Shown here: in pieces, positions 6,654 to 38,184 of the stretch
Position numbering within the stretch: position 1 is the first letter of the stretch
How the letters are laid out: each line of letters begins with the position of its first letter
DNA from: Zingiber officinale
Taxonomy: Eukaryota; Streptophyta; Magnoliopsida; Zingiberales; Zingiberaceae
Length of the DNA: 64,000 nucleotides
Direction of reading: 5' to 3'
NCBI RefSeq assembly: GCF_018446385.1
Contig: NC_055992.1
Coordinates: forward strand, 103,558,947-103,622,946
Program-made: the position numbers and the translations under genes
Notes under the pieces: generated by a model
The model's database searches: none
The model's input: only the letters and a program-made list of their open reading frames with translations
What the model was told of the DNA's origin: nothing

Positions 6654-8747
6654 CTAAGCAGCAACTTTGTAAGATGAGTTTCTTGACTCCAACCATGATT
6701 CAGCCGCAAGTTGTGTGGTTAGAAACCATCCAGCCTTGTCTGGTGCTTCATGAAATGGTGCACAGATTTCTCTCAAGTGAGACTGGAAAACAGATGCTAA
6801 CCCTTTTTCTGAATATTTATGTTTTCCATGCCCTGTGAAGATACCAAGTAATGGAGGCAAGTTTTCTCCATTCTGTAAGGATTTGGCTAGATCATTCATC
6901 CAAACATGTAATGCAGTTAGAGCAGCTCCATGTGAGAGACCCTTCACATATAAGGACCACTGTGTAGCAGATCGAGATTGAAGATCTGTATATATCTCAA
7001 GTTGAATTGCCAGGTCGAGAAGCACACACGCTCTTTCCAAATGGTTGAGGTTTACACAGAGATCTATCAAACAATTACTATAAGCTCTTTTTACTTCACT
7101 ACTCACGTTATGGAAGAGTAGTACAGCTTCTTGTCTAACTGTATCATTGTCACAAGCCTCGTCAACCAGCAAATTTACTAAAGAACCCAGCTGAGTATTT
7201 CCTCTTTCAATACAACCAATAATCTTCCCAAGTTCTTCTGTTGCCGTCTGAGCTACCACATTCAGGAGACAGCCACATAACCTATCATCAGGTTTGATCC
7301 CCCAACCTAGAAGTTTGTCAAATGCTTTAACAATGCTATCAGTTCTTCCAGCTTTGCCATAGCACTGGATTAGAGATGTAAGCACAAAAATATTTGGCTG
7401 ATACCCAGCTTCTGACATTTCATTCAACATGCTTTCAGCCTCAGAAACTTTTCCACTGCACGAGTATGCAGTTATCATAGCCGAGTAACTCCAACTATCT
7501 GGTTTGCAGGCATTTGATAGCTCCTTCATTTCATTAAAAATTTTCACTGCTTCATCAACTGAACCAACATCAGCGCACATTGACAAAAGCATGTTGTACA
7601 AGATAATATCAAGCTCCATTTCCTTCCTCATCTGCCTATACACGTCAAGCGCATCTTCAGCATATCTAGCTTTAGCATATGCTCGCAGAAGAGCTGAGTA
7701 TGTTGCTCTGTTAGGAGCCAACCCCTTGCTACACATTTCACGGTAAATAGTCTTGACTTGCCATGGTCTTCTGGCCCTGCCCATGGCATCCAACAACGTA
7801 TTGTAAATAACCAAATTAGGCTTAGCACCAAGGGCCTTCATCTCTTCGTACACATTCAGCGCCCCATCAAAATTACCTGAAATGCCATATACCCTAATCA
7901 CAGTCGCAAAAGTCACAGGATCAAGCCGCCACTTTTCTGCACGAGCACGGTCGTACAATTCAAGAGCCATCTCCACATTATTCAACCGACCATAAGCATC
8001 AATCATGGCCGAGTAGGTGATATCATCTGGGTGGCATCCAAACTCGGGCATTTTCTCAAACCACTCGACTGCTTTTTCGGGCTTGTTGCAGAACCTGGCA
8101 CAGCTTATCATAGTTGTGAATGTCACGTTATCCGGCTTAATTCCTTTTTCCAGCATCTCCCCCCAGAGGCCCTCCGCGCCCACCAAGTCCTTGGACTTTC
8201 TAAGAACCTTAAGCGTGACGTTGTAGAGAACTACCTCCCTGTCGATCTTGCGCTGGAACCAACGAAGAGCAAGAACGGCATTATGGGAGTTGGACATGCT
8301 GTTAAGGACGATGACGGCGTCCTGCACGGTTGCTGCGCTGCCGAAGGAGGCAAGGACGGCGGAGATGGAAGGATCGGTAGGGTCGGAGGAGTCTAGGGAG
8401 GCAGCGAGGAGGGCAAGGCGGGCGTAGCGGGAATCGGAGGAGCGCTGGCGGAGGCGGGAGGCGCGAGGGCTGTTGGGGTTGACCCAGATGGAGTTCTTGA
8501 AGGGCGATGGATGCGAAGATGGAGGAGAAGGAGGAGAGGAGATATGGTGGTCTTCTAGGGAGACGCTGAGTGGCTTGTGGAGATGCCGATGGAGATGAAG
8601 GAAGTGGGGAAAGGAAAGGGGGTGGGACGGAATGAAGCTTTTCCTTTTACTCCTGCATGAGGTCGAGGAAGCGAGAGGTAGAGGGAAGGAAGAGGAGGAG
8701 TGGAGTTGGGCAAAGGAAGGAGCTGCTGGAGAGAAGCAGAAAGTCAT
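6654..8747 (-). CDS. SVR7: Chloroplast PPR-SMR protein, SVR7/ATP4 type
   Basis: Single-exon gene of 697 residues. The start is the ATG at 8747; the codon before it is GTG. The first ~60 residues are rich in Ser, Pro, His and Arg with few acids, as in a plastid transit peptide. Tandem P-type PPR motifs run from about residue 170 to 490 (for example NVTFTTMISCARFCNKPEKA, DDITYSAMIDAYGRLNNVEM, NLVIYNTLLDAMGRARRPWQ). The C-terminus is SMR-like, with WSLYVKGLSHGAALTALHVW, TGHGKHKYSEKGLA and GWFLTTQLAAESWLESR. The whole length matches Arabidopsis SVR7 (At4g16390), and maize ATP4 is the known counterpart. Those proteins act in the plastid and support accumulation of ATP synthase and other photosynthetic transcripts and their translation. 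No break is seen. The gene converges on MAP70. Confidence 0.95.
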   Translation of the reverse strand: MTFCFSPAAPSFAQLHSSSSFPLPLASSTSCRSKRKSFIPSHPLSFPHFLHLHRHLHKPLSVSLEDHHISSPPSPPSSHPSPFKNSIWVNPNSPRASRLRQRSSDSRYARLALLAASLDSSDPTDPSISAVLASFGSAATVQDAVIVLNSMSNSHNAVLALRWFQRKIDREVVLYNVTLKVLRKSKDLVGAEGLWGEMLEKGIKPDNVTFTTMISCARFCNKPEKAVEWFEKMPEFGCHPDDITYSAMIDAYGRLNNVEMALELYDRARAEKWRLDPVTFATVIRVYGISGNFDGALNVYEEMKALGAKPNLVIYNTLLDAMGRARRPWQVKTIYREMCSKGLAPNRATYSALLRAYAKARYAEDALDVYRQMRKEMELDIILYNMLLSMCADVGSVDEAVKIFNEMKELSNACKPDSWSYSAMITAYSCSGKVSEAESMLNEMSEAGYQPNIFVLTSLIQCYGKAGRTDSIVKAFDKLLGWGIKPDDRLCGCLLNVVAQTATEELGKIIGCIERGNTQLGSLVNLLVDEACDNDTVRQEAVLLFHNVSSEVKRAYSNCLIDLCVNLNHLERACVLLDLAIQLEIYTDLQSRSATQWSLYVKGLSHGAALTALHVWMNDLAKSLQNGENLPPLLGIFTGHGKHKYSEKGLASVFQSHLREICAPFHEAPDKAGWFLTTQLAAESWLESRNSSYKVAA

Positions 8748-9132
8748 CACCTTGCTCGATTCTTCGCCGCTGTCGTCGCCGCCTCCTCCTCAGAAGCCGA
8801 CGGTGATGAGGGTTTGGTTTTGGGGACGATGACTGATGAGTTCGCTTCGCTGCCTTATCAGATTATTTGCATCGATTGCGTCCACTTCTTCAAGGGATTT
8901 ACGTCCCGATTGAGTTCCGAAAAGGAAACAAGTTTTATCGCAAGGACTATTTTGTAAAAAAAACGGTTTTTCGGGTAAAACCATAAGGACTTGTAACAGG
9001 ATAGAATTTAAACTAAACTTTTAAAGTTCTCTGACAAAACAATTTTATTATTACAAGAATTATGTGTTTCGATTCGAGAACAAATCTGGTAAGCAAGAGT
9101 TTGGACTTTTATAGCAAAATGAAGAAAAACAA
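8748..9132. other. 5' region of the SVR7 gene
   Basis: Holds the presumed promoter and leader of the minus-strand PPR gene and the spacer to the tRNA gene. The part near the gene is GC- and CT-rich, grading into AT-rich sequence. No other gene is seen. Confidence 0.5.
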
Positions 9133-10460: not shown

Positions 10461-12812
10461 TGTTGGGTGTTATTCGGAATTATGTTCTGTTTCTCCTGTA
10501 CAAAAATTTGTACAAGCACAAAACTTTTCCTAGCAGCTCATGTACTCTACAGAAGTTAAACTTGAATTACAAATGAAACTTCACATTTTTAATCCAAGTT
10601 GTTCTTCAGAAATTAAACTTGGATTGGAAACGGAACTTAACATTTTTACTCCAAGTTCAACTCGTGTGTTCTTCAGAAGTTCAACCATATTACAGAAGTT
10701 GATTAAATATTTATTTCAAAGATTGACTTCCAGGTTAAACATGGTGAGGCACTCGGCCTTCTTGGGTATGGGATCATCCACCACTTCCTAGACAAAGCCT
10801 TTCAAAGGAATTGAATATTTAAACTTCTTACAATAACCTTAGATTTAACTATAGAGACCACAATAGAAACACAAAATCAAAACACAAAATCGATGGCCTC
10901 TTGTGTTGATATTTCAGGATTCATACAAAGAACATAAACTAATTATGCATCAGAAACAAATAATTAGTTATACCTTTCTTTGCAGCTAAAGATCTCTTGA
11001 TCTTCTGTTGTATTCCCCTCCTCTTGGACGTCATGTGGGTGATGATCTACCAAGATGAAATCCACCCGAACCTTCTTCTTTGCCTACAAGTTTCAGCCAC
11101 CCAAGGAATGCCAAAATAGGAAACTTCCTTCTCTTCTTCTTTCCCTCCAAGCAAACCAGCCACAAGAAGATGGGGCTTGATGTGCCTCCAGCCTTAAGAG
11201 AAGAAAACAAAGGGAGAAGAGAAAGAGAGAAGGGTCGGCCACCAAGGAAAAGAGAAGAGGGAAAGCTTAGGTTTCGGCCCTAAGGGAACAAGAGAAATAT
11301 GGAGATGTGTTATTCCCATAAGGCACCCTCTACCTCTCTTTTATAATCCTTGGTCATGGCATAAAAGAAAATTTTAATAATAATTAAAATCTCTCTTTTA
11401 AATTTCCTATTGTGATGGCTATAAATGGAAAGTTTAAAAAATTAAAATCTCTTTCTTTTAAACATTGTAGATGTCTAAAAAAGGAAAGATTTTAAAATTA
11501 AACTTCTCTTCTAAATCATGGTTACAAAAAAAGAAAGTTTTATCAAAATTAAAATCTCTCTTTTTAAACCATTATAGATGGCAACAAAAAAGGAAAGATT
11601 TTAAAATTTAAAACTCTCTTTTAAAACCATGTGGATGACTTCAAAAAAGGAAAATTTTAAAATTAAAATCTCTCTTTTAATCCTTTATAGATTGCTATAA
11701 AAGGAAATATTTTTTAAAAAAATAAAATATCTCTTTTTATTTCTTTAGTGGTCGGCCCCTTGCTTGGTCACCAAGCAAGGCTTGGCCGACCACATCTTGG
11801 ACACTAAGATGGGCTTGGTTAGGCCCTTGCTTGGGCACCAAGCAAGGATGTGGCCGACCCCTAGCTTGGGTAAGAAGCTGAGCTTTGAGTCGATAAAAAG
11901 ACTTTTAATAAGAGGCTACAACAGGGACCTAAAGGAGGAATTGGTTTTGGCCTCCTAATGAACTTGAGTTTCCTGTGTTCGATCCGAACGCCCAACTCAA
12001 GTTCATCATTAATAACTCATACCACTAAAGAGTCATTATTAAACTACCGCACCGATCCCATATTACACTATGGGTTCCTTCTTATCATGAGTGTATTAGT
12101 CTTCCTGTGTTTAAGATATCGAATGTCCATTAATTAAATGAGTTACTGACAACCCACTTAATTAATATCTAGCTCCAAGAGTAGTATCACTCAACTTCAT
12201 TATCATGTCAGACTAACTCCACCTGCATGGTTTACATGATAATCCTTATGAGCTCCTCAAGGGGACATTATCAACCTAGATAACTAGGACACAGTTTCCT
12301 TCTATAATCAACAACACACCATATAAATAATATTATTTCCCAACTTATCGGGCCTATTGATTTAACGAATAAATCTTACCCATTGATAAATCAAAGAAAT
12401 AAATACTAAGTATATGTGCTTGTTATTATATCAGGATTAAGAGTATGCATGTCCATAATAACAGAAGTTCTGTTCTTTTATGCAGTCAGTATAAAAAGAA
12501 ACAACCTCAAATGGTCCTATTCAATATACACATAGTGTACTAGTGTAATTTTATAGTCAAGATAAACTAATATCAAATTGTACTACAACCATTCCAATGG
12601 TTTGTCTCAATCCATCTTGGTTGTGAACTACTATTTATAATTTATAAGGAACTGATAACATGATCTTCTATGTGATACCACACACCATGTTATCTACAAT
12701 ATAAATTAAATGGATAACTGCATTTAACTAAATGCAAATATTTGACCAATGTGATTCTCATTTCAAAATAAATGTTCATACAAAAAGATACGCTTTAGTA
12801 TACATCATAACA
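10461..12812 (-). repeat. Copia LTR, left copy (3' LTR of a minus-strand element)
   Basis: Pairs with 16563-18922. It contains a palindrome around GCTTGGTCACCAAGC (about 11760-11780) and related TTGCTTGGGCACCAAGCAAG downstream. It also has runs of purine and pyrimidine blocks with GGAAAGATTTTAAAATTAAA-like repeats at about 11380-11740. Confidence 0.88.
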
Positions 12813-13137
12813 ATCTCCCACTTATACTAAAAGACTATGTTGTCATATATGCTGACATACATCTGATTCTCATCCCCTCAACATGCCCATAAAAAACTCT
12901 CGCCTGAAGGGCCTAAGTGAAAGGATCCAGGTTATCTGCTGATGCAACCTTGGCGATAATAACTTCTCCTCATTTTACGATGTCTCGTATTAGGTGGTAC
13001 TTGCGCTCAATGTGTTTACTTGCCTTATGTGCTCGTGGTTCCTTTGAGTTTGCTACTGCATTACTATTATCACAATAAATTATGATAATTTTGGGCAAAT
13101 CAGAAATCACATCTAAGTCCATCAAGAAGTTTCTGAG

Positions 13138-15458
13138 TCATGCAGCTTCTTTGGCTGCCTCAGAAGTTGCCACATACTCAGTTTCCATAGTGGAGTCCGA
13201 AACGTATTTCTGCTTAACACTCCTCCATATTATGGCTCCACCTCCTAAAGTAAACATATACCCCGAGGTTGACTTACTATTATCCCTATCTGATTGGAAG
13301 TCAGAATCCGTGTAACCCATAGGGAGCAAACCATCTGCCTGGTAAACCAGCATATAATCTCTAGTCCTTCTCAGGTACTTTAATATATGTTTTACAGCAG
13401 TCCAATGTCCCTGTCCTAGATTACTTTGATATCTGCTAACCATGCCCACGGCAAAACAGATATCTGGTCTTGTACATATCATTGCATATATTAGGCTTCC
13501 TACAGCCGAAGCATAAGGAACTGCCTTCATGTCCTCTATCTCCTTTGATGTTTTAGGACACATCTTTTTAGATAAAGATACTCCATGCCGAAAAGGTAGA
13601 AAACCTTTCTTGGAGTTTTGCATGCTAAAACGAGCTAGGATAGTATCGATGTATGAAGCTTGGGATAAGCACAACATTCTTTTCTTGCGATCCCTTATTA
13701 CTTTGATTTCAAGAATATGTCCACATTCTCCCAGATCCTTCATATCAAACTGCTTGGACAACAATACCCTTACGTCTAACAACACTTTGACATTGTTGCC
13801 AATGAGCAAAATGTCATCTACGTATAGTACAAGAAATACCACCACATTTCTATCACTCTTCTTGTATACACAAGACTCATTTGGACACTAAATAAATCCA
13901 TAAGATTAAACTGGATGTTCCAAGATCTCGAAGCTTGCTTCAGTCCATAGATAGACCGATGCTGCATCTTTATCTTGGAGTGCTTCATCATATGCCCAGG
14001 GATCATATTCATGTTCACCAGGGATCAAGTCTGAAAATTCTCCCAAAAACATGAATCTATCAGGTTGCCTAACAACCCTCCCACTACGACGAGACATTAC
14101 TTGTAATTGTGCATCATTTGTGATACGTGTTGCAGTTTCTTGTGGTATCTCATCTTGTACCGTTGGTACTAAGGTAGACATGTCTTCTCTTATTTCTTCA
14201 AGAACAATTTTACTCATGGGTTTGTGGTTCATTACATAGTCCTCTTCTAAAAATCGGGCATTGATGCTAACAATGACCTTCTGATCTTTAGAACTATAAA
14301 ATAAACCACCTTTCGTTCCTTTAAGATAACCCACAAACAAGCGAACTTCTGTACGTGATTCGAACTTATCAGTGTCTCCCTTCAGCACATGTGCTGGACT
14401 ACACCAAATCCGAATATGTTTCAGACTAGGCTTACGCTCATTCCACAATTCTGTGAGAGTAGAGGGTACTGACTTAGAAGGTACCAAGTTCAGAATGCAC
14501 ACTACTGTTTCCAGAGCATATCCCCAAAATGAATTTAGTAATTCTAAAAAGGAAAGATTAAAATCTCTTTCTTTTAAATTTCCTATTGTTGTATCGCGGG
14601 AGTTATTGGATTTAGAATATACAAATTGTTAACCAACGTACCAAAACATATAACTACCCTATTTTTCTTGACAACTACTTTGTCACCAAAAGAAACAGAA
14701 TATTCATCCATAAATAGTTTAGAAACTGAAATCAAGTTCTTTCTAAAACTTGGTACATAAAGATAATTTTTTAAAATCAATGTTTTATTTATATCACAGG
14801 ATAAATAAACATCTTCCACTGCAACAGCCGCCACTTTCGTAGCATTACCCATATAGACGGTGATTTCCCCTTCATGTAGTCGTCGGATTTCCTAGAACCC
14901 CTGTAATGAATTGCAGCCATGATCAGTGGCTCCCATATCTACACACCAGGTATCGGTAGATAACACCGCTAAATATGTTTCGACAACTAATGAATAAGAT
15001 ATACCTATATTGTTCTCATTTTTGCGAGGATAACCCGTTAAATGAGTCATCATCTTAAGGATATGATCCCTTACGACTGTCCCCTCAGTCATGGTGGTCG
15101 TCATTAAGATTCTCATGACCTCCTGTCTAGCAGCCCGATTCTGGTGTCCAAATAGTTCCTTGAGATTGAGCATCATATCATAGGCAGTGGGTAGGGCCTG
15201 ATGTTGATGTTGCAGCACATTTGACATAGAAGCCAAAATATAACACCGCGCCATCTCATCTACCTTGACCCATTTTCTTTGTCTCTCTATCTCCTCTTCA
15301 CTAGAATCCTTATCAGACACGCTCGGACAGACCTCAAGAAGTACGAACTTGTATCCTTCAGCAGTTAAGACAATGTCCAAGTTTCGTTTCCAATCAATGT
15401 GATTGGGACCAGTAAGTTTGTTTTCTTTCAATATAACAGCAAGAGGATTGAAAGCCAT
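13138..15458 (-). mobile_element. Coding remnants of the copia element (gag to RNase H)
   Basis: Several partial open stretches lie between the LTRs. They resemble copia Gag (WKRNLDIVL, YDMMLNLKELFG), the protease/zinc-finger neighbourhood, integrase (IRIWCSPAHVLKG, FVGYLKGTKGG), reverse transcriptase (YVDDILLIG, LGECGHILEIKVIRDR) and RNase H (GYTDSDFQSDRDNSKSTSGY). The order is the copia order, with integrase before reverse transcriptase. The set is incomplete and broken in several places. Confidence 0.85.
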
Positions 15459-16562
15459 TTGAAATCCTAAGAATCACAAAATATTTAATCAAAACTTTAG
15501 AATTTAAAATAATATTGATTCCTCAAACAATATCATTTAAATTCACCAACACCTCAAAATACCGTGAATTTTGTATGCCACGATAGTGTGGACATATACA
15601 AATTCAAATATTTGTAAGAGGAGGTTTTACCCATTAAGTTTATTATCTTGTCAACCTAACTTTATAACAAATAAAATTAATAGTTGGTTTGTCTTCGGTT
15701 ACACAAATAATAGCAGTGACTTCGATGGGGAGGATACTATTAAATGCGCCTAAGTGTATACCATTACTTGATACTTAGTCCATTAATTAGAATTGTGCCC
15801 CTTCAGATGGAGAAGATCACAAAAACCTAAATAATTTTCTATAATCATCCATAAAGGAAGTTTGATCTAGTGATCCATAAACAAACTCATTCGATGTGGA
15901 GGAAGGCACTCAAAGTCAACGCGCAAGTTTGAATGCATCACTTACAAACCAGTAATGTAGACCGTGAAATTTAAATAAATCCTCTCCCACTTTAGTTATT
16001 TAAAACGAGGAATTTTAACATGCACACACACACAACACATTAGCATAAAAGGCAATAAATATGAAAAATAATTTTCCAACTATTATGGCCTCATCCATAG
16101 TTGTCCTCCGTGTGCCACCAACCCTAGCCGCCGCCAACAAGTCATGTCATCGCGTCTATCTTGCTTTCTTTTCCGCTGCGCCTCTGGTCCTCAAATAACA
16201 CTACATCTCGTAAGGATACGATCCGCGATAAAAATAAAAGTTTACATTTATCGGTCCTATATTCCACAAGGGAATGTACATGTAATCTAGATCGAACAGA
16301 ATGTAAAATCCTAAAACTAATACAACTCCTGCTGTATTTAATAATTACAATTATGCACACACATAAAATGCCCTCGACATGCCCGAGGGTCCAATCACAC
16401 AAACACAATAGGGACATAATAGTTGGAACTAGGATGTCTGCAACCACAGAGTTAATCTATTTGCACATCCTACTATTATCCTGCCTAAATTTATGTATGA
16501 AAAGTGCATAATTTAACTGAAAACCAAACACACAGAGGCAGAAAACTAGCTCTGATACCAAA

Positions 16563-18922
16563 TGTTGGGTGCTCTTCGAAATTCCGTTCTGTTTCCCCTG
16601 TACAAAAATTTGTACAAGCACAGAACTTTTCCTAGCAGCCCATGTGCTCTACAGAAGTTAAACTTGGATTACAAACGAAACTTAACATTTTTAATCCAAG
16701 TTGTTTTTCAGAAGTTAAACTTGGATTGGAAACGAAACTTAACATTTTTACTCCAAGTTCAACTCATGTGTTCTTTAGAAGTTAAACCATATTACAGAAG
16801 TTGATTAAATATCTATTTCAAATAGTGACTTCTAGGTTAAACATGGCGAGTCACTCGACCTTCTTGGGTATGGGATCATCCACCACTTCCTAGACAAACC
16901 CTTTCAAAGAAATTGAATATTTAAACTTCTTACAATAACCTTAGGTTTAACTATAGAGACCACAATAGAAACACAAAATCGAAACACAAAATCGATGGCC
17001 TCTTGTGTTGGTATTTCAGGATCCATACAAAGAACACAAACTAATTATGCAGCGGAAACAAATAATTAGTTATACCTTTTTTTGCAGCTAAAGATCTCTT
17101 GATCTTCTGTTGTATTCCTCTCCTCCTCTTGGACGTCATGTGGGCGATGATCTACCAAGATGAAATCCACCCGAACCTTCTTCTTTGCCTACAAGTTTCA
17201 GCCACCCAAGGAATGCCAAAATAGGAAACTTCCTTCTCTTCTTCTTCCCCTCCAAGCAAACCGGCCGCAAGAAGATGGGGCTTGATGTGCCTCCGGCCTT
17301 AAGAGAAGAAAACAAAGGGAGAAGAGAAAGAGAGAAGGGTCGACCACCAAGGAAAAGAGAAGAGGGAAAGCTTAGGTTTCAGCCCTAAGGGAACAAGAGA
17401 AATATGGAGATGTGTTATTCCCATAAGGCACCCTCTACCTCTCTTTCATAATCCTTGGTCATGGCATAAAAGAAAATTTTAATAATAATTAAAATTTCTC
17501 TCTTTTAAATTTCCTATTGTGATGGCTATAAATGGAAAGTTTAAAAAATTAAAATCTCTTTCTTTTAAACATTGTAGATGTCTACAAAAAGAAAAGATTT
17601 TAAAATTAAACTTCTCTTCTAAATCATGGTTACAAAAAAAAGAAAGTTTTATCAAAATTAAAATCTCTCTTTTTAAAACCATTATAGATGGCAACAAAAA
17701 AGGAAAGATTTTAAAATTTAAAACTCTCTTTTAAAACTATGTGGATGACTTCAAAAAAGAAAAGATTTTAAAATTTAAATATCTCTTTTAATCCTTTGTA
17801 GATTGCTATAAAAGGAAATATTTTAAAAAATTAAAATCTCTCTTTTTATTTCTTTAGTGGTCGACCCCTTGCTTGGTCACCAAGCAAGGCTTGGCCGACC
17901 ACATCTTGGACACTAAAATGGGCTTGGTCGGGCCCTTGCTTGGGCACCAAGCAAGGATGTGGCCGACCCCTATCTTGGGTAAGAAGCTGAGCTTTGATTG
18001 GATAAAAAGACTTTTAATAAGAGGCTACAACAGGGACCTAAAGGAGGAATTGGTTTTGGCCTCCTGATGAACTTGAGCTTCCTGTGTTCGATCCGAACGT
18101 CCAACTCAAGTTCATCATTAATAACTCATACCACTAAAGAGTCATTATTAAACTACCGCACCAATCCCATATTACATTATGGGTTCCTTCTTATCATGAG
18201 TGCATTAGTCTTCCTATGTTTAAGATATCGAATGCTCATTAATTAAATGAGTTACTGACAACCCACTTAATTAATATCTAGCTCCAAGAGTAGTACCACT
18301 CAACTTCATTATCATGCCGGACTAAGTCCACCTATATAGTTTACATGATAATCCTTATGAGCTCCTCAAGGGGACATTATCAACCTAGATAACTAGGACA
18401 CAGTTTCCTTCTATAATCAACAACACACTATATAAATAATATTATTTCCCAACTTATCGGGCCTATTGATTTAACGAATAAATCTTACCCATTGATAAAT
18501 CAAAGAAATAAATACTAAGTATATGTACTTGTTATTATATCGGGATTAAGAGCACGCACGTCCATAATAACAGAGGTTCTGTTCTTTTATGCAGTCAGTA
18601 TAAAAAGAAACAACCTCAAATGATCATGCTCAATATACACATAGTGTACTAGTATAATTTTATAGTCAAGATAAACTAATACCAAATTGTACTACAACCA
18701 TTCCAATGGTTTGTCTCAATTCATCTTGGTTGTGAACTACTATTTATAATTTATAAGGAACTGATAACATGATCTTCTGTGTGGCACCACACACCATGTT
18801 ATCTACAATATAAATTAAATGGATAACTGTATTTAACTAAATACAGATATTTGACCAATGTGATTCTCATTTCAAAATAAATGTTCATACAAAAAGCTAG
18901 GTTTTTAGTATACATACTAACA
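16563..18922 (-). repeat. Copia LTR, right copy (5' LTR of a minus-strand element)
   Basis: Partner of 10461-12812, with the same TG...CA ends and the same internal palindrome block. Scattered point differences from the left copy give the element a middle age. Confidence 0.88.
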
Positions 18923-20010: not shown

Positions 20011-20225
20011 AACATGTTCGATAGAGGCTAACTTAGCAAAAAGTCAAAAAGATGATCCGTTGAGTCTTGATATATTCCTTCAATATTTGACTAATTTGCA
20101 ATAGGGGTTCAACTTATTCACCAATTAAAGGAGTATTTTCAAACTCTAAAATAAGTAGCAGCAACAATTAATTAAGTCAGGCCCGGCTCAAGGCATAGGC
20201 CATTAAGACCTATCACTACAAGAAA

Positions 20226-20545
20226 AAAGTTAACAGATAACGCTTTAAAAGCGTTGTCTATGTGGCTGAAAAAGCGTTGTTAAAAGCACTGTTGTTAAAA
20301 GTCTGCTCAAAGACAACACTTTAAAAACGTTGTCGTTTGTAGTAAAGACAACGCTTTTGCAATGCTTTAAAAGCGTTGTCATTTTTTGCAAAGACAACGC
20401 ATAAAAAGCGTTGTCTTTGTTAAAGACCACACTTAAAAAGCGTTATCTTTTTTAAAGACATCACATAAAAAGCGTTGTCTTTTTTAGTAAAGACAACAGT
20501 TTCACAATGCATAAAAAAGTGTTATTTTTTTTAGCAAAATACAAG
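20226..20545. repeat. CACTA subterminal repeat array, left
   Basis: About ten copies in both orientations of a motif like AAAGACAACGCTTTAAAAGC, alternating as imperfect palindromes. The right end has the mirror array at about 23440-23640. In En/Spm-type elements such arrays bind the transposase. Confidence 0.8.
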
Positions 20546-20814
20546 AAGTTTTAAACTATTATCTTTTAATACCAAAGACAAATAAAAGATAAATGAAAAT
20601 TAATCTACTTCAATCAACAACATATTATTAAATAAACAACTGAGATAAATATATAAATTATCATCGTTACACTTCTATAACAAACATAATTACTCGCATA
20701 CAAAGAAATTTTAATTAGAAGATACTCAAAACTAGTCTTATCATCTACATCTTATTACATGAACTTAAAGGATCTTGATAGATGCTACTTATCCTCTTAT
20801 AACTTGAATTCTCT

Positions 20815-20942
20815 TTACTCATTGACTTTAATCATCTTCTCGCTTAAATACCAAAGCTTTCTTGATAGTTCTTCGTCGAAGTACTTTCCAGTCACACTCC
20901 TGAGGTTCGGATGCAATGCCACATAACATGTAGTTGCTGCTC
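20815..20942 (-). pseudogene. Captured last exon of a TIC32-like short-chain dehydrogenase
   Basis: After an acceptor (CAG at 20943-20945) the minus strand reads AATTCYVALHPNLRSVTGKY, then FDEELSRKLWYLSEKM, ending in TAA at 20815-20817. The AATTCYVALHP...VTGKYF...KLW pattern is the C-terminus of plant TIC32/retinol-dehydrogenase-like SDRs (usually GVSGEYF...AKKLW). Only this exon is present, without the NAD-binding and catalytic parts. It lies in the CACTA and is a gene fragment. Confidence 0.8.
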
Positions 20943-21060
20943 CTGTAATCACGGAAATGTAGATAAATGAAATAAATCAAGTTCTCATAACATCAATGAC
21001 TATCATATTCAATGAAAATAAGAACATAACATCACCTAGAATTTGGAAAAAAAAACAAAC

Positions 21061-21268
21061 GAGAAGAGAGAAGTTCCTGGCCCTTTTTGTCTCCTCCAAT
21101 CTCAAAGTGCTTGCATCTCTAAGAGAACAAAATAGATATTAGCTATAGGTGGAAAAATTACAAAGGATAGAGAGGTAGAATATCAGTACAAACTTTTATT
21201 GGATGACGTGAATAATGCTCACAGCTCTGGCATTGAAGTGTCAACACAATCTTCTTTGTTGTTTTGGA
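21061..21268 (-). pseudogene. Captured fragment of ribosomal protein eL42 (RPL36a/L44), two exons
   Basis: Exon 21194-21268 reads [20 protein letters not shown] then RHPIK. After an intron, 21061-21118 reads [13 protein letters not shown]. This is the C-terminal half of eL42 (family [13 protein letters not shown]...[23 protein letters not shown]). A one-base loss near the end disrupts the final GTSLF codons, and the normal stop is gone. The intron is kept. It is a fragment inside the CACTA; the first half of the gene is missing. Confidence 0.88.
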
Positions 21269-21510
21269 CTGAAAAAAGAATTAGTTCTATTGCTTACAAT
21301 TTTATATAGTTGAGCATTAAATACAACTATGAATTTGTTTCAAGAAACTAGGCTCAAAACAAAAAACTTCATTGTCTCTAACCACTAAAACTAGCCTATT
21401 ATTTCGACCGCACCACACGATTATGAACTGATTATAAATTGGAAAGACAATAACAACAACATGGACACATCAGTAAGAACTCAGAAACTAGAGAGATGTA
21501 TAGGAAGCTT

Positions 21511-21580
21511 ATGTCTTCTTCATTAAAGCCTTCTCGACTTAGCGCTTCTTAGCAAACATCTTCCTCTTAATTCCCAGAAC
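21511..21580 (-). pseudogene. Captured fragment of NSA2 (ribosome biogenesis)
   Basis: After an acceptor (CAG at 21581-21583) the minus strand reads VLGIKRKMFAKKR, a stop codon in place of the usual Tyr, then VEKALMKKT. Plant NSA2 has ALGIKGKMFAKKRYAEKALMKKT here. NSA2 acts in maturation of the large ribosomal subunit. Only about 23 codons survive, with an internal stop. It sits within the CACTA beside the other fragments. Confidence 0.72.
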
Positions 21581-21753
21581 CTGTAAATAAATCGTAAATC
21601 TTTAAGACAGTTCCACACACATGGAAAATCCTTGTGTTAGAAGTAAATACCAGAGTTAAAAAAAATCCCATCCTTTTGGCAAACGCAAACTCTCATGGAC
21701 CACATAAAAAAATCCAAATAAACTATTCTCTTAGCTTCTCTGGTCAACTTTGA

Positions 21754-21916
21754 TCATTGTTCCTTATTCTGTAACTTCTTGACATTGTTAATCCTCATCA
21801 TTTGCAATGACTTAACAAACCTTGCACTTCTCATATCATCTTCTGACAATTGTGGAACTTGATCCTTTTTTCCTTTTTCATATGTTGACTTCCTTTGGCT
21901 CATTTCATCTTCTAGC
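21754..21916 (-). pseudogene. Unassigned coding-like stretch in the CACTA
   Basis: Open for about 54 codons and ending in TGA at 21754. It is charged and helical in character, including KSTYEKGKKDQVPQLSEDDM and RSARFVKSLQMMRINNVKKL. It behaves like another captured exon, but I do not recognise the family. Confidence 0.35.
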
Positions 21917-21964
21917 AGAATTTTATGCCCAAACTATCTAAATTGTACTTGGCCATGTTCACAG

Positions 21965-22650
21965 GGATGAGGAGTTGTTAGGTCAAGGCCTTGAATTGAA
22001 TGATGACTTGCAAAATGTACTTGCAAAGCACGATGCTATTGCTTCTGGTTCACCTCTGCAAGCTGGTGCATCTGAGTTGATCGAAAGGGACCCTGTGGCA
22101 CCTCAACCTACAAAACCTGAAGTCTCTGAATCCCTTCCAAGAACTCCAATTGTGCCTCAGTCTGCTAGTCAGTATGATGAGGAAGAGGAAGGCGAAGACG
22201 ATGATTATGCTCAGTCAGCTCGCAGGTTAGTTTTAGGTAGCTAATCTACCATATTTAGAAAGAAAGAAAAAAGACTGGTTAAAAACTTGTCTGTGCTTGT
22301 GCAGGAACTCCAAAGTCAATCCACCAAATTCTAGAAACAGCTCCATTGCAACCAGTGATCATTTGGGCTCTCGAAATGGAACTGATGTTACAGCTTCCTC
22401 CATAGCAGGAAGCATGGAGGCATCATCACCTCCTTCAGCCAGTAATGCTCCAGCACTTCCTGATCCTCCAACTTCAGTTAACACTTTCACCAAAGAACAA
22501 GACAAAATCAGCCTTTTGAGCATTACCTTGTCAAACCCATCACCACCCACACTCCTTTAACTCCTACAACGTCTGATCAAAATGTATCAATTATGCTGAT
22601 GTCGATAGCAATGCCAATGCCAATCCATTTGAACCAACTCAACTCTTAGC
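21965..22650 (+). pseudogene. Captured fragment of a TOM1-like (TOL) protein gene
   Basis: Exon 21965-22225 follows an acceptor (ACAG) and reads DEELLGQGLELNDDLQNVLA, KHDAIASGSPL and later an acidic EEEEGEDDDYAQSARR. A normal GT-AG intron (22226-22304) follows. The next exon reads NSKVNPPNSRNSS... and ALPDPPTSVNTFTKEQDKIS then LLSITLS. This matches plant TOM1-like proteins, which bind ubiquitin and act in endosomal sorting; the first motif ends their GAT domain. The VHS domain is absent. A stop and frame change occur after about 22555. The orientation is opposite to the other captured fragments. Confidence 0.85.
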
Positions 22651-22752
22651 TTTCAATGTTTTGAAGCTAAGAGAAGGGACTGCTTACTTGGATCTGAACT
22701 TCATTCGATCTAGTTCCCTTGAAGCTAATCAGAGAAAGGGGAGGATGGGTAC

Positions 22753-23004
22753 CTGAAACGGAGGTGAGCAGCGCGACCATGCTGCGGTAAAGCATAGTGA
22801 GGCCCTCCCGAGCGACGATTCTACGAAGGAGGTCGATGCCCGAGATGGATCATCGGGCAAGGGCAAAGGAATTTGAGGAAGCGAGAGTCGGCGGTGGCTG
22901 TTGCAGGCGGATACGAAGCGTGTCGAGTGGATAGCTGAAGGTGACCCTGACCATGCCGTTGATGCCCCCCAACTATTCACCAAGAACTCCGTCCAGAACT
23001 CCAT
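22753..23004 (-). pseudogene. Captured first exon of a mitochondrial carrier, BAC2-like
   Basis: It starts with ATG at 23004: MEFWTEFLVNSWG. A frame change follows, then GGINGMVRVTFSYPLDTLRI, RLQQ and LLRRIVAREGLTMLYRSM. It ends at a donor CAG|GTACCC. SYPLDTLRIRLQQ is a form of the carrier signature PxDxxRxR, and the opening resembles plant BAC2 (mitochondrial basic amino acid carrier). One frameshift and one stop are visible, so it is a fragment and not an active gene. Confidence 0.82.
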
Positions 23005-23440
23005 GATCTTCTACTCTCATGTACACCTCCCTCTTGCCCTAAAAAAAACTTGCACAGCCAAAGGGGGAGCCGATCCTGAAACCTACCAAGGAGGCAGCTT
23101 TGCACTCAATCGCTTACTTGTACCCAAAGATAGGCAAGGATGGAGACGAATAAGGAAGGGGGCGGAAACATTGGTTCTCCTCCTCCTGCGCTTGTGCTGG
23201 GATCAAGAAGTTGACGAAGACGGAGATGGAGCTTAGGGACAGTGGTTTCGGCGAAGGGAGTCTGCATGAAAGGAGATCGCGAGTTAGGAGGCCAGATTGC
23301 TAATTTAGGTTTCGGCGAGTGGAGGGTTTTTTGTTTTCGGCGTGAGGCTTTGTTGCGTGTGGGAGGATGTGTTGCGGAAAAATAATTGGGTAAGTTAAAA
23401 GTTTTAGTCAAATATCAATTGGTGGTTTAAAGACTAATAA
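23005..23440. other. CACTA interior, GC-rich stretch without an identified gene
   Basis: GC-rich sequence between the carrier fragment and the right subterminal repeats. It probably includes 5' flank of the captured carrier gene or another gene. I recognise no protein family in it. Confidence 0.35.
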
Positions 23441-23879
23441 AATTATTAATAAACAATGTTTTTTAAAAATAGTCTTTGACCCATAAAAATCATTAATAGA
23501 CAACGATTTTTAAAAAAGCGTTGTCTATTAGTTAGAAAATAAATAGATAGACAACGTTTTTCATTAAAAGCGTTGTTAAAAAAAAAAGACAACGCTTTTT
23601 TAAAAAAAAACGTTGTCTTTTAAGTGTTGTAAAATCTAATTTTTCTTGTAGTGTATGTCTAGGGCCCTAATTTTATTAGGATCCATTATTATTTTAAAAA
23701 ATAGATTTAATACCTAATATTTACATTTAATAGCTATACTTCTCAGGCTATATTAGGCATGCATGTATATTTTACTCCATATTTGGCTTGCTTCGATCTA
23801 GTGCTCTTTAGATTTTGCTTCAGATTTTACTTGTCACACCCCAGAAGAGTCCCTACCGATAAAATTTCGACAGCATCTC

Positions 23880-26369: not shown

Positions 26370-28157
26370 TGTTGGGATCGTTCGTACTCGGCTAGAGAGG
26401 GGGGTGTGAATAGCCGCCCTAAATCGCTCGTTTCTTCCTACAATTCGTTAGCGCAGCGGAAAAATAAACTAGAAACGAAAGGAAGAATATCAAACCTTAA
26501 CACAGCGATGTACGAGGTTCGGAGATGATGCTCCTACTCCTCGGCGTGTCCGTAAGGTGGACGAACCCAATCAATCCGTCGGTGGATGAGTCCCCGGAAA
26601 ACCGGCTAATAAAAACTCCTTCTGGGTGGAGAAACCTCGCCACACTTGTTTGCAACAGCAAACAGGAGTACAAGTACAAAGAATAAGCAAGAAATACAAT
26701 AAGAATACACAAGCACTCTACCAAACTTGCTTTCTCGTCGACTGGAGTCCGGATGAAGCAGCAGCTTCAAAAACCCTAACAGCAGCAGTTGTTCTAGTCG
26801 GGGAAGCTCACGCGAAGCTTTCGGAAGGAACTCAACAGAGCTCTTATCGCAGCCCACAAATCTTCAGCAGAAGAGAAGGGAAAAAAGAAGGAAAAAGAAG
26901 TACCAAAGCCTTGATCTCCTTTTATAACCTGCGAACCTGCACAGTGAAGACAGAAGCCAGCGGAGAAGACGGAGCGACCCGTTGTGACTCAACGGTCGAA
27001 TCGTGGACCGATCAGGCTCCACCCTGATTGGTCCAGGACCCTTCTGATTGGTCTGGGGACCAATCAGGCCCTGGGCTGATCGGTCCCTAAACCGATCAGA
27101 TTGCTCCACAGAAAGTTGCCCAACTTTCTGTTCGTTTCCTGATCGGTCTGTGGACCGATCAGGCCACAGCTGGATCGGTCCACAGACCGATCCCACCTCT
27201 CTCGGCTGCGTCTCTGATCGGTCCCCAGACCGATCAGTAAGCCCACAGAACCTGATCGCCTTCTGTTTGTTATCTGATCGGTCACCAGATCGATCAGATA
27301 CACAAACGTATTGCTGGATCGGTCTGCAGACCGATCCAGAGCTTGGTTTTTGCCCAAACCAAGTTCCAAACCTTCCAAACCAATATTCGGTCAACCTTGA
27401 CCTATTGGTAGATCATGCTTAGCATCCGGTCACTCCCTTGACCTGCTAAGACTCCTCACCAAGTGTCCGGTCAATCCCTTTGACCCACTTGGACTTTTCT
27501 CTTCGTGTCAAGTATCCGGTCACTCCCTTGACCTACTTGACCTTCTCAACACCAGATGTCCGATCATCCTTGATCCATCTGGATTTTTCCTTGCCCGGCT
27601 TCACTCACCAGGACTTTCACCTAGCTTCACTCACTAGGATTTTCACACTGCCTAACATCCCAGTTAGGACTTTCTCACTGCCTGGCTTTACTCACCAGGA
27701 CTTTCCAACTGCCTAACATCCCAGTTAGGACTTTCCCACTGCCTGGCTTCACTCACCAGGACTTTCCACACTGCCTAACATCCCAGTTAGGACTTTCCCC
27801 GTGCCAAGTCTCCATACTTGGACTTTCCCAGCTACCTGCTTGGACTTTTCCCCGTGCCAAGTCTCCGTACTTGGACTTTTCCAGTGCCAAGTCTCCATAC
27901 TTGGACTTTTCGCGAATCAGGTCAACCAGGTCAACCTTGACCTAAGATTGCACCTACAATCTCCCAAACACCTATTCTTGTCAAACATCAAGAATACAAC
28001 TCTCTTCTCGTCAAACATCGACATGCAACTCAACTAGGTCAACCTTGACCTAAGGTTGCACCGACAATCTTCCAAGTCAAACATCAAAATACAACTCGAG
28101 TCAAGTCACCTCGAGTCGGGTCAACCAGGTCAACCTTGACCTAAGGTTGCACCAACA
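26370..28157 (-). repeat. LTR of the gag-only element, left copy
   Basis: It carries CTAGAGAGGGGGGTGTGAATAG near its left end. An array of palindromes of the type CTGATCGGTC...GACCGATCAG lies at about 27000-27330. Then come tandem blocks built on GGCTTCACTCACCAGGACTT and CAAGTCTCCATACTTGGACT (27560-27910). The end has repeated GGTCAACCTTGACC palindromes. Confidence 0.88.
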
Positions 28158-30038
28158 ATCTCCCCCTTTTTGATGTTTGACAAAACCCATAATCAAGTTA
28201 GGTTAACCCGATAACCTAACTTAGGTTTTCCAACCATCTTCCAATGTCCAATGTTCTTTCCTTGAACATTCTCTGGACATTCTCCCCTTAGGTTAACCCG
28301 ATAACCTAACTTGGGTTCTCCAATAATTCTCCCCCTTTTTGACACACATCAAAAAGAATTCCAATGTTCTTCCTCGAACATTCCTTGACATTCTTCCCCT
28401 AGCTTAGGTTAACCCGATAACCTAACTTGGGTTCTCCAATAATTCTCCAATGAACGCTCTCCCCTTTTTGACACACATCAAAAAGAAAAAGGAGAGTATC
28501 AAGGTCAAGAGTTTCTTCCTAATGAAAGTCCCATACCTTTCATTGAAACTCTTAATTTCCCCCTTGATACTAAACTCAACAATCAACTTAGTGATAATCC
28601 CATATCACTAATCCTCAAAAGTCTTAAGGAGTAAAAACTCCCCCTAAGAGTCAACTCTCCTTGACAATTAGGTAAAACTCCCCCTAAAGGTCAACTCCCC
28701 CTTGACCATTGCACCAACAATGTCTTGGAGAGTTTCAAACCTTTAGAAACCCGAAACTCAACTCCCACAGCTGAAATTTCAGACCACAGTCGAAATTCAG
28801 CAAATTCAGCATTTGGCACGCCCTGATCGGTCACCGGACCGATCAGGCCTTCCCTGGATCGGTCACAGTGACCGATCCACACAGACCTGGACCGATCAGA
28901 CTCCCTTATGATCGGTCCACAACTTTGACATTAGAAGTTTCTGATTTTTCTCCTTCCGAAATTCAGAAACCTCTAGAAAATCACAGAAAATTTGAAAAAT
29001 TATGAAAATTTGAGGATACATTCCTCATACCACATACTATCATGGAAAAATAGTTTTATCTGAAAATAACTTCCATTTTCAAATCTTGATACAAAGTTCA
29101 AAAACTTTGAAATAGTTCAAGTTTACCTCAACTTTGTATCAATTCGCTCAATGATGAATGCTATCACTAGAAAAGCTTCATCAAGGTTTTTCAAATCAAT
29201 TTTGAAATGATTTTAAACCCTTTAATTTGGGACCACAATCTTTGGACTATATGTACATGACTTGTACATAAGCTTTCCCTATGATCCCCAATTTCTTGAA
29301 TTAGGCTCATCTAGGTACAAGAACTATGCACCTTGATCCTAACTCATGATCCTAATATCTCACACACATCTAAAGTGTATCAAACACATCCAAGTCAATT
29401 TTGATGTGAGATATGAGTTTAGGTCATCTTAGGCTAAGTTCTCATGCATTTTCTAAACACCAATTTGATCTCAATATCAAATTGTGTTTGTCCTCAAATC
29501 AATTTCATTGATTATAATGCAAGAGATGATGACATGGCATAAAATGATATCATAAGTAAAAACATGTGCCAATGTCATGATGTCATGGCATAAAGTTTGA
29601 AAACTTAAATAAAGCATGACATATAAATAACCTAATCATTATCATGACATTTCAAATGATCATAAATTAAATATGATGTCATGACATGGCATATGGCAAA
29701 CAATCATGGTAAGTTAGCACAAATGAAATACCTAGATTACCTATCTAAGTATCCTTAATCACTTAGCTAATTTAACATCTAATCCTAGATTGCCCTTATA
29801 TCCCTAAGAGAAACCAAAATCCCAATTATGGTATTTCTCTAGGTTTTCCTCAAATTGTGCCACTTAAGATTAAAAATGATATTTCCACCATTAGGCACAT
29901 TTAGCTCTTCAAGGAGTAACTAGTAATTCTATTTCATTTTCAAAGGTTAACAAAACCTTGAAAATGCTCCTTGAGTGTCAATTTCCTCAAAGTTGGGCTA
30001 ACTACCCTTCTAAGCGGAGTTGACACTCTCTAACCCAT
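28158..30038 (-). other. Non-coding interior of the gag-only element
   Basis: No domains on either strand. It has three repeats of TTAGGTTAACCCGATAACCT (about 28198-28430), a short cluster of the GATCGGTC/GACCGATC palindromes at 28822-28920, then AT-rich sequence. It lies where pol would sit in a complete copia element. Confidence 0.6.
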
Positions 30039-31511
30039 CTATGAGGTAGAGAGGATGCTCCTAGGAACCCAATATCTATGTGAGCTCATTGGGTTTACTA
30101 AATATTCACTAGGGATGACTTCCCTAGCAACCCTCCTAATGACCCTCTTAGGCTTTGAAGCCTTGGTCATTTGGGACTCATCAAGATCAACTCTAGGGGT
30201 GACTCCCCTTGTGACCTTGGTGGTGGTCTTCCTAGCCCTAGGCTTTGTTCCATAATCGAATGGAACACTATGATAAGTGGGCTTGACCACTTGGGACTTA
30301 GGTTTGTGACCCAAACCTTTCTTGTCCTTGGACTTGGGTTTTTGACTCTTAAACCCTAGAGATGACTTCTCCATGTTTTTAAGAGCCTTTTCTAAATTAT
30401 CAAGTCTTGACCTCAAGACTTGATTTTCCCTCTCTAATACCTCAAGTGTTAATTTGTCATTTTCTCTTGAGATATTCCTAGGCATGTGTCTAGTCTTCTT
30501 GGGATTTCTACCTAGGTTTTCCTTAGCCTTAGATGAGTTAATCCTAGAGTTGGCCTTCCTAGTATTATCCTTATCTAAGTTAACATGTTTAGCACCTAAA
30601 CACATGTATTGATTTCTAAGGTTAACATGCTTATCATTCTTGACAATTGCAATAAGACTACTAGCATGTATCTTATTAGAAGTGCAAGAATGAACCTTAG
30701 AGGATACCTTAGGGTTTGCCTTCGCTCCCCCTTTACACGTGCTTGGTCTTTTGTCCTTGTGAGATTGCCTCCCCCTTGGACATTGACTCCTATAGTGTCC
30801 TCGTTGCTTGCATTGGAAGCACACCACGTGCTCCTTGCCCTTGCGTTTTGGGACTCCGACTTCCTTGATCTTTGGCGCCGGTGGAGTCTTCTTAGTCTTC
30901 TTTGGACATTTACTCTTGTAATGTCCAAATTCCCTACACTCAAAACACATTATATGCAATTTGCTAGAAACTAAATGGCTTGAGTTACCTAGAGGTGAGG
31001 ATGGATGAACGCTCTCTCCTTCATCCCTTCCGGAGGTAGAAGCTTCTTCTTGCTCCGAACTTGAAGAAGAACCCTCCTCCTCTTCTTCTTTAGATGTTGA
31101 GTGTCCCTCAACTTCTAAATCCACATCTCCATGAAGTAAGCTACTTGGCTCACTTGACTCCTCTTCATGGCTTGAAGTGGAGTTCCCCTCATGGAACTTA
31201 GCCAAGTTGTTCCACAACTCCTTGGCATTGTTGTATCCACCTATCCTACACAAAACATCATTAGGTAAAGAAAATTCAAAAATCTTCAATACCTCATCGT
31301 TGACTAGGGATTGGTGGACTTGTTCCTTGGTCCACTCCTTCTTCTCTAGGGTTTCTCCTTTCTTGTCCGTCGGAGGCTTGAAACCTAATTGGACACAACT
31401 CCAATTCTCAAGATTAGTCATAAGAAAATATTTCATTCTTACCTTCCAAAACGCGAAGTCGTCGCGATCGTAGAAGGGTGGAATGGTGATGTCGTCTCCG
31501 AGTTGATCCAT
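30039..31511 (-). CDS. Retrotransposon Gag, copia type
   Basis: 490 residues in one open frame from an ATG at 31511; it looks whole. The N-terminal domain PPFYDRDDFAFWKVRMKYFL and IGGYNNAKELWNNLAKFHEG is typical of copia Gag. An acidic Glu/Ser-rich linker (about residues 110-180) follows. Two CCHC zinc knuckles bind RNA: CFECREFGHYKSKC and CFQCKQRGHYRSQC. A basic, partly coiled-coil C-terminus ends the frame. It is the only coding region of the element at 26370-33372. Confidence 0.9.
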   Translation of the reverse strand: MDQLGDDITIPPFYDRDDFAFWKVRMKYFLMTNLENWSCVQLGFKPPTDKKGETLEKKEWTKEQVHQSLVNDEVLKIFEFSLPNDVLCRIGGYNNAKELWNNLAKFHEGNSTSSHEEESSEPSSLLHGDVDLEVEGHSTSKEEEEEGSSSSSEQEEASTSGRDEGESVHPSSPLGNSSHLVSSKLHIMCFECREFGHYKSKCPKKTKKTPPAPKIKEVGVPKRKGKEHVVCFQCKQRGHYRSQCPRGRQSHKDKRPSTCKGGAKANPKVSSKVHSCTSNKIHASSLIAIVKNDKHVNLRNQYMCLGAKHVNLDKDNTRKANSRINSSKAKENLGRNPKKTRHMPRNISRENDKLTLEVLERENQVLRSRLDNLEKALKNMEKSSLGFKSQKPKSKDKKGLGHKPKSQVVKPTYHSVPFDYGTKPRARKTTTKVTRGVTPRVDLDESQMTKASKPKRVIRRVAREVIPSEYLVNPMSSHRYWVPRSILSTS

Positions 31512-31572
31512 CTCTAGCTTGTGCTCCCTCGGGTGTTAATCCGGCGAAGAGCGACCTCGCTCTGATACCACT

Positions 31573-33372
31573 TGTTGGGATCCTTCGTACTTGGCTAGAG
31601 AGGGGGGGTGTGAATAGCCTCCCCAAATCGCTCGTTTCTTCCTACAATTCGTTAGCGCAGTGGAAAAGTAAACTAGAAACGAAAGGAAGAATATCAAACC
31701 TTAACACAGCGATGTACGAGGTTCGGAGATGATGCTCCTACTCCTCGGCGTGTCCGTAAGGTGGACGAACCCAATCAATCCGTCGGTGGATGAGTCCCCG
31801 GAAAACCGGCTAATAAAAACTCCTTCTGGGTAGAGAAACCTCGCCACACTTGTTTGCAACAGCAAACAGGAGTACAAGTACAAAGAATAAGCAAGAAATA
31901 CAATAAGAATACACAAGCACTCTACCAAACTTGCTTTCTCGTCGACTGGAGTCCGGATGAAGCAGCAGCTTCAAAAACCCTAACAGCAGCAGCTGTTCTA
32001 GTCGGGGAAGCTCACGCGAAGCTTTCGGAAGGAACTCAACAGAGCTCTTATCGCAGCCCACAAATCTTCAGCAGAAGAGAAGGGAAAAAAGAAGGAAAAA
32101 GAAGCACCAAAGCCTTGATCTCCTTTTATAACCTACGAACCTGCACAGTGAAGACAAAAGCCAGCGGAGAAGACGGAGCGACCCGTTGTGACTCAACGGT
32201 CGAATCGTGGACCGATCAGGCTCCACCCTGATTGGTCCAGGACCCTTCTGATCGGTCTGGGGACCGATCAGGCCCTGGGCTGATCGGTCCCTAGACCGAT
32301 CAGATTGCTCCACAGAAAGTTGCCCAACTTTCTGTTCGTTTCCTGATCGGCCTGTGGACCGATCAGGCCACCGATCCCACCTCTCTCGGCTGCGTCTCTG
32401 ATCGGTCGTGGAGACCGATCAGACTTCATGCTGACCGATCAGTAAGCTCACAGAACTGCGCTTTGCCTTCTGTTTGTTATCTGATCGGTCACCAGATCGA
32501 TCAGATACACAAACGTATTGCTGGATCGGTCTGCAGACCGATCCAGAGCTTGGTTTTTTCCCAAACCAAGTCCCAAACCTTCCAAACCAATATCCGGTCA
32601 ACCTTGACCTATTGGTACATCATGCTTAGCATCCGGTCACTCCCTTGACCTGCTAAGACTCCTCACCAAGTGTCCGGTCAATCCCTTTGACCCACTTGGA
32701 CTTTTCTCTTCGTGTCAAGTATCCGGTCACTCCCTTGACCTACTTGACCTTCTCAACACCAGATGTCTGATCATCCTTGATCCATCTGGATTTTTCCTTA
32801 CCCGGCTTCACTCACCAGGACTTTCACCTAGCTTCACTCACTAGGATTTTCACACTGCCTAACATCCCAGTTAGGACTTTCTCACTGCCTGGCTTTACTC
32901 ACCAGGACTTTCCAACTGCCTAACATCCCAGTTAGGACTTTCCCACTGCCTGGCTTCACTCACCAGGACTTTCCACACTGCCTAACATCCCAGTTAGGAC
33001 TTTCCCCGTGCCAAGTCTCCATACTTGGACTTTCCGCGTGCCAAGCTACCTGCTTGGACTTTTCCCTGTGCCAAGTCTCCGTACTTGGACTTTTCCAGTG
33101 CCAAGTCTCCATACTTGGACTTTTCACGAATCAGGTCAACCAGGTCAACCTTGACCTAAGGTTGCACCTACAATCTCCCAAACACCTATTCTTGTCAAAC
33201 ATCAAGAATACAACTCTCTTCTCGTCAAACATCGACATGCAACTCAACTAGGTCAACCTTGACCTAAGGTTGCACCGACAATCTTTCCAAGTCAAACATC
33301 AAAATACAACTCGAGTCAAGTCACCTCGAGTCGGGTCAACCAGGTCAACCTTGACCTAAGGTTGCACCAACA
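31573..33372 (-). repeat. LTR of the gag-only element, right copy
   Basis: Matches 26370-28157 closely, including the palindrome array and the tandem CACTCACCAGGACTT blocks. Small length differences fall in the palindrome region near 32340-32450. Confidence 0.88.

Positions 33373-38153: not shown

Positions 38154-38184
<31 letters not shown>

What the first reader, a model, noticed from the sequence alone, without database searches (positions are those of the whole stretch)
20214..23653. CACTA element carrying pieces of at least five unrelated host genes
Inside perfect CACTA ends with a TAT target repeat lie fragments of a TIC32-like dehydrogenase, ribosomal protein eL42, NSA2, a TOM1-like endosomal sorting protein and a BAC2-like mitochondrial carrier. 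A sixth coding-like stretch is unassigned. Four identified pieces are on the minus strand and one on the plus strand. Introns are kept in the eL42 and TOL pieces, which means DNA-level capture. Five sources in 3.4 kb is a high load. A chimeric transcript or small RNAs matching the parent genes could affect them.
Basis: partly seen in the sequence, partly recalled or inferred. Interest (0 to 1): 0.85.

Follow-up and report, generated by a model that had tools for sequence, protein, structure and literature searches.

The report
Gene-fragment-carrying CACTA transposon in ginger
A ginger jumping gene has picked up scraps of five unrelated plant genes in several steps, once swapping one scrap for another, and then multiplied in the genome; it is a well-preserved example of a known kind of transposon.

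Summary
Window 20214-23653 is a 3,440-bp CACTA element with perfect 14-bp inverted ends, a TAT target duplication, subterminal repeats, and pieces of TIC32-like, eL42, NSA2, TOM1-like (TOL) and BAC2-like genes. The other haplotype (C8) carries the empty site. The genome is almost certainly haplotype-resolved cultivated ginger. Thirteen copies carry the TOL piece (one clade, 99/98); no allelic pair was seen among them. Host genes, or for TIC32 a host family, were found for each piece. Cargo came in steps. The TIC32 piece matches at least 150 places. eL42, NSA2 and BAC2 are old captures (70-79% identical to host loci). Six older copies hold a piece of the proteasome gene RPN7 where this one holds TOL. 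The TOL piece is 97% identical to 901 contiguous bases on C19/C20; short filler marks both seams, and by distance it arrived shortly before the copies spread. The 'sixth coding stretch' is the reverse strand of TOL donor DNA. Variation is even over codon positions, and eL42, NSA2 and TIC32 share no exact 21-mer with the host stretches read, so coding function or small-RNA effects on those parents look unlikely. It is a Pack-CACTA; soybean Tgm-Express1 (five unrelated fragments) is a direct precedent.

The parts
20211..20213 (.). target site duplication TAT (left)
   Evidence: single TAT at the allelic empty site on C8
23654..23656 (.). target site duplication TAT (right)
20214..20227 (+). 5' terminal inverted repeat CACTACAAGAAAAA
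23640..23653 (-). 3' terminal inverted repeat
20236..20479 (.). 5' subterminal repeat array (11 of 17 motif places)
23499..23617 (.). 3' subterminal repeat array (6 of 17 motif places)
20821..20943 (-). TIC32-like dehydrogenase C-terminal piece, inside the 5' 738 bp shared with other elements
20955..21274 (-). eL42 piece: two exon parts and the intron between
   Evidence: host C14:94788058 / C13:114765897
21435..21703 (-). NSA2 piece
   Evidence: host C15:68744160 / C16:57604841
21704..21738 (.). filler at the left seam of the TOL capture
21739..22639 (+). TOL (TOM1-like) piece, 901 bp contiguous with the donor: two exons, the intron between, and DNA upstream of them; stands where older copies hold an RPN7 piece
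22640..22648 (.). short filler at the right seam of the TOL capture
22732..23232 (-). BAC2-like mitochondrial carrier piece: 5' leader, first exon and probably the start of intron 1
   Evidence: host C3:73063239 / C4:62219384

Best explanation
A non-autonomous CACTA transposon (Pack-CACTA) of ginger. SHOWN: CACTA ends, 3-bp duplication, an allelic empty site, 13 TOL-bearing copies at separate places with the same seams, host matches for the pieces, and an older sister form with an RPN7 piece in place of TOL. INFERRED: an En/Spm-type transposase supplied in trans binds the subterminal repeats and moves it. Cargo was gained in steps on a chassis whose 5' end already held the TIC32 piece: eL42, then an NSA2-RPN7-BAC2 block; then a break inside one element was repaired with synthesis templated on the TOL locus now on C19/C20, losing RPN7 and leaving filler at both seams; that element then multiplied. 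The cargo is a passenger without coding function.
For: TSDs match in 11 of 13 TOL copies; L009 and L017 do not cleanly. Empty allele. Copies and donor: (20 of 20 candidates scored). RPN7 segment in 6 copies that lack TOL, two of them (C3, C4) alleles; identified. L023 and L054 align 245 bp past the element end, so that older insertion is on both haplotypes. TOL copies one clade, 99/98; same seams in 13 of 13. Copies to consensus K2P 0.9-2.5%, mean 1.7%; consensus to donor 1.8 and 2.1%. Codon positions 1/2/3 of variable sites: 10/11/10 and 8/13/7 in the two TOL exons. No transposase in the ten frames scanned, while 150 of 150 listed genomic PF02992 matches pass the cut-off.
Against: No autonomous partner with these ends was identified. 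The repair route rests on two seams: the 13-bp filler match has a rival source, a 12-bp match in the deleted RPN7 segment. Both donor alleles carry one extra A that 13 of 13 TOL copies lack, so the capture predates it or came from a close relative of that locus. The older copies do not form one group in the tree; L024 falls outside. Allelic absence was shown for this insertion alone. No transcript or small-RNA data.
Confidence: 0.87

Rival explanations
1. Same element, but the TOL piece was gained by merger of two neighbouring CACTA insertions flanking the TOL locus, followed by loss of inner ends (the model proposed from Arabidopsis Pack-CACTA), rather than by templated repair.
For: The model is described in PMC8903248 and PMC13317346 (passages seen). 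The left half ends at NSA2 and the right half begins before BAC2, as complementary deletions could produce.
Against: In the donor stretches held (L025, L026) only the 901 bp match the element; other matches are 34 bp or shorter. Both donor alleles keep the TOL segment, and the seams hold filler. None of this excludes an event whose traces were lost.
Confidence: 0.3
2. The cargo is functional: a chimeric transcript or small RNAs from the copies regulate the parent genes.
For: Copies are several and young; the TOL donor alleles share 487 and 458 of 881 exact 21-mers. Tgm-Express1 shows that such fragments can be spliced into transcripts (PMC1947982, passages).
Against: No exact 21-mers with the eL42, NSA2 and TIC32 host stretches read, 11 of 531 for BAC2; the TOL donor is frameshifted and seems truncated; variation among copies is flat over codon positions; the NSA2 frame holds a stop.
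Confidence: 0.04
3. A mis-joined contig or chance assembly rather than one mobile unit.
For: None found.
Against: 13 copies with the same seams at separate places, own target duplications in 11 of 13, allelic empty site.
Confidence: 0.01

Closest known systems
Tgm-Express1 (CACTA, soybean wp allele)
   Same: CACTA element with exon and intron pieces of five unrelated host genes (PMC1947982, abstract and passages seen)
   Different: 5.7 kb, sits in an F3H intron and is transcribed with it; five other genes. Here 3.4 kb, 13 copies, no transcript known, and an earlier form with a different cargo is preserved.
Pack-CACTA / Pack-TYPE elements (Arabidopsis, maize, rice)
   Same: Non-autonomous, CACTACAA ends, host coding DNA from several loci; in maize Pack-CACTA hold the most distinct loci among Pack-TYPE elements (PMC8903248, passages seen)
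   Different: Here donor, order of capture and a cargo replacement can be read in one genome.
CACTA with captured gene fragments in Chenopodium
   Same: Captured host gene fragments in CACTA elements (PMC8978399, passages seen)
   Different: The examples in those passages lie beside transposase-associated domains; here no transposase was found in the frames scanned.

Membership tests
CACTA (En/Spm, DTC) superfamily | Terminal inverted repeats beginning CACTA | tested here: met
   14 bp perfect
CACTA (En/Spm, DTC) superfamily | 3-bp target site duplication | tested here: met
   TAT here; 11 of 13 TOL copies; allelic empty site
CACTA (En/Spm, DTC) superfamily | Repeated subterminal motifs in both orientations | tested here: met
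   17 places, all near the ends
CACTA (En/Spm, DTC) superfamily | Mobilised by a Transposase_21-type transposase | not testable with these tools
   PF02992 matches exist in the genome; none was tied to these ends
Pack-CACTA (Pack-TYPE) | Lacks its own transposase | tested here: met
   Longest frame 119 aa; no transposase family in ten of the longer frames scanned; shorter frames not scanned
Pack-CACTA (Pack-TYPE) | Carries fragments of host coding genes found elsewhere in the genome | tested here: met
Pack-CACTA (Pack-TYPE) | Several copies with shared ends | tested here: met
Pack-MULE | MULE ends and a target duplication of about 9 bp (recalled) | tested here: not met
   3-bp duplication and CACTA ends
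Helitron | No inverted ends, no target duplication (recalled) | tested here: not met

The most novel reading that the evidence does not exclude
One slot of a Pack-CACTA element works as a replaceable cargo bay: a break inside an element was repaired from an unlinked gene locus, swapping an RPN7 fragment for a TOL fragment with templated filler at both seams, and the changed element then multiplied within a single crop genome, so donor, before-state, after-state and an empty site are all still readable.
Probability: 0.55. Interest if true: 0.5.

Novelty: new member of a known kind. Interest (0 to 1): 0.4.

Why it matters
More than one model exists for how CACTA elements gain host gene pieces (merger of neighbouring insertions, or repair from another template). 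This family keeps the states before and after one capture, the donor locus, both seams and an empty allele in one phased genome, so the models make different, checkable predictions. For ginger annotation, such copies risk being called as eL42, NSA2, TOL or carrier genes.

Tried and rejected
Sixth gene: rejected; antisense frame in TOL donor DNA. C21/C22 locus with NSA2-RPN7-BAC2 in the same order (L049, L050): no CACTA ends in the stretch held and the BAC2 part is decayed; read as an old relic of the same block on both haplotypes, with NSA2 found on C21 alone. C1:40032190 looked like a TIC32 parent by its 133-aa frame but the DNA beside it reads like the element's own ends. Autonomous partner: the PF02992 search listed 150 of 6,544 candidates and could not be tied to these ends. 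Empty-site tests at four more insertions (L012, L013, L015, L019; 4 of the 12 other TOL copies): for three the flank is a repeat whose other copies run uninterrupted over the joined site, so no allelic site could be picked out; L015 gave no match. Queries for L010, L011, L014 and L016 were made but not sent. Absolute dating was left out: no substitution rate was looked up. Paper search brought nothing used; of one search only the listing was seen.

Full report
Identity of the genome. The window lies in a 3.09-Gb assembly of 211 contigs. Contig C2 is 194,392,478 and C22 88,687,397 bases long. The haplotype-resolved ginger assembly has 22 pseudochromosomes of 88.69 to 194.39 Mb in 11 pairs, after a 3.09-Gb contig assembly (PMC8342452, passages seen). 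I take it to be that genome; no tool named it. Matches falling in pairs on C7/C8, C13/C14, C19/C20 and others fit.

The element. CACTA ends of 14 bp, TAT duplication, subterminal motifs only near the ends. On the other haplotype, C8:90782394-90782693 runs straight through the site with one TAT; 300 of 300 query bases align at 95%, with 40 of 650 candidates scored, and a longer alignment covers 1,525 columns at 94%. Substitutions between the two flanks are 51 of 1,094.

Copies. The whole-element search lists 91 matches with 40 of 3,855 candidates scored, so its counts are lower bounds. The TOL-segment search scored 20 of 20 candidates: 13 elements, the donor on C19 and C20, a 77% paralogue on C21 and C22, and short matches on C1 and C2. 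Of the 13 elements 11 have matching 3-bp duplications; L009 and L017 do not cleanly. Their 500-bp flanks show no allelic pair; the only matches join a 5' flank to a 3' flank of another copy and look like shared repeats. Only one allelic empty site, that of the window, was shown directly. Copy-to-consensus K2P is 0.9-2.5%, mean 1.7% over 13; the consensus is 1.8% and 2.1% from the two donor alleles, and the donor alleles are 1.3% apart. Mean pairwise K2P among copies differs by segment, from 2.3% (TOL) to 5.4% (3' end), which I did not explain.

Host parents. eL42: C14:94788058 and C13:114765897 at 79%, another pair at 70%; host exons and intron are read in L051. NSA2: C15/C16 at 78-79%. BAC2-like: C3/C4 at 78-79%, with an open first exon beginning MEFWPEF. 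TIC32-like: the 41-aa piece matches 150 places, the reporting limit of 443 candidates; most have a frame of about 50 aa like the element's, 27 of 150 carry a stop, and I did not check each. A recalled TIC32 peptide finds host loci on several pairs, led by C21/C22; the parent itself was not pinned down. TOL: C19:91994132 and C20:88235326, 901 bp at 97% including an intron. That locus has an extra A that breaks the frame in both alleles and is lacking in 13 of 13 element copies and in the paralogue. The 3' end of an 807-aa PPR frame lies 1.1 kb upstream, and none of the four frames of 40 aa or more between them matches a Pfam family; shorter exons could be missed. It is probably a truncated copy.

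Order of capture. Six copies have 665 bp of other DNA in place of TOL. It matches a locus on C18 whose exon reads as RPN7 (plant proteasome chain 8amz, E 2e-24, from two joined reading frames). One such insertion is on both C3 and C4, so that form is old; two of the six are these alleles. The C21/C22 relic has the same NSA2-RPN7-BAC2 order. A stretch with the 5' end and eL42 but no NSA2 match exists (L056, 4 kb read, no right end found). Eighteen further elements share the 5' 738 bp at about 90%, and several of them about 200 bp of the 3' end as well, with other interiors; in 6 of 18 a right end with a matching duplication was found. The midpoint-rooted tree of the 5' part puts the 13 TOL copies in one clade, 99/98; the older copies are not one group, and L024 falls outside. 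That eL42 came before NSA2 rests on presence patterns and is an inference.

Seams. In 13 of 13 copies the left seam has about 35 bp of filler and the right about 9 bp (L019 also has a local duplication). The left filler holds 13 bp equal to the reverse complement of sequence beside the right seam; 8 of 20,000 random window stretches do as well, and the draws were not kept clear of the element. A 12-bp match in the deleted RPN7 segment is a rival source. Such filler suits repair with template switching, but two seams of one event cannot settle it.

Function. Variation among copies over codon positions 1/2/3 is 10/11/10 and 8/13/7 in the TOL exons and uneven only within small numbers in BAC2 and eL42; donor against paralogue gives 29/20/38, an excess at third positions, and this element against the donor 1/7/5. 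Ten of the longer frames hold no transposase and, apart from GAT in TOL, no family above E 0.06. Exact shared 21-mers are 0 of 141, 0 of 316, 0 of 256, 11 of 531, 8 of 881, and 487 and 458 of 881 for TIC32, eL42, NSA2, BAC2, TOL paralogue and the two donor alleles; with up to 2 mismatches 3, 32, 28, 97 and 112 for the first five. One allele of each host gene other than the TOL donor, and only the stretches fetched, were compared. No RNA data were at hand.

Against known kinds. It meets the tested features of CACTA and Pack-CACTA. Tgm-Express1 is described as five unrelated host gene fragments in a 5.7-kb CACTA (PMC1947982); in maize, Pack-CACTA hold the most loci of the Pack types (PMC8903248). 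A paper search for ginger, Zingiber officinale, CACTA and haplotype-resolved gave none; ginger, Zingiber, CACTA gave 106, of which the ten listed are unrelated. This does not show that the family is unreported. The original Arabidopsis Pack-CACTA paper is not held; its model is known here from passages of a later research paper and a review.

Noticed in passing
L040 (G000:C12:84789028-84795762), sibling element: A sibling CACTA with the same 5' end carries a piece matching TOR kinase (mTOR chains E 4e-12): the chassis has taken up other host genes too.
   Followed up: partly
L049 / L050 (C21:14719800-14724400, C22:10573700-10577000): Old NSA2-RPN7-BAC2 block without CACTA ends in the stretch held; NSA2 found on C21 only. 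Relic, or the place where the block formed, is open.
   Followed up: partly
L025 (C19) and L026 (C20): TOL donor locus looks like a truncated, frameshifted gene copy 1.1 kb from an 807-aa PPR frame.
   Followed up: partly
window 6654-8750: 698-aa open frame on minus, PPR-like by eye; a likely host gene.
   Followed up: no
window 10546-18000: Similar 57-bp repeats at 10546-10657 and 16652-16759 around a copia-like frame (by eye) at 13138-13845 suggest an LTR retrotransposon.
   Followed up: no
window 27620-33125: The same 61-bp repeat array twice around a gag-like frame (by eye) at 30039-31511, perhaps two LTRs.
   Followed up: no
window 56013-56379: 184-bp unit in two copies with 100% matches, perhaps a recent tandem duplication.
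   Followed up: no
window 36797-38260: AT-rich tandem arrays (GC 0.19 for 36001-38000) and a TTA microsatellite.
   Followed up: no
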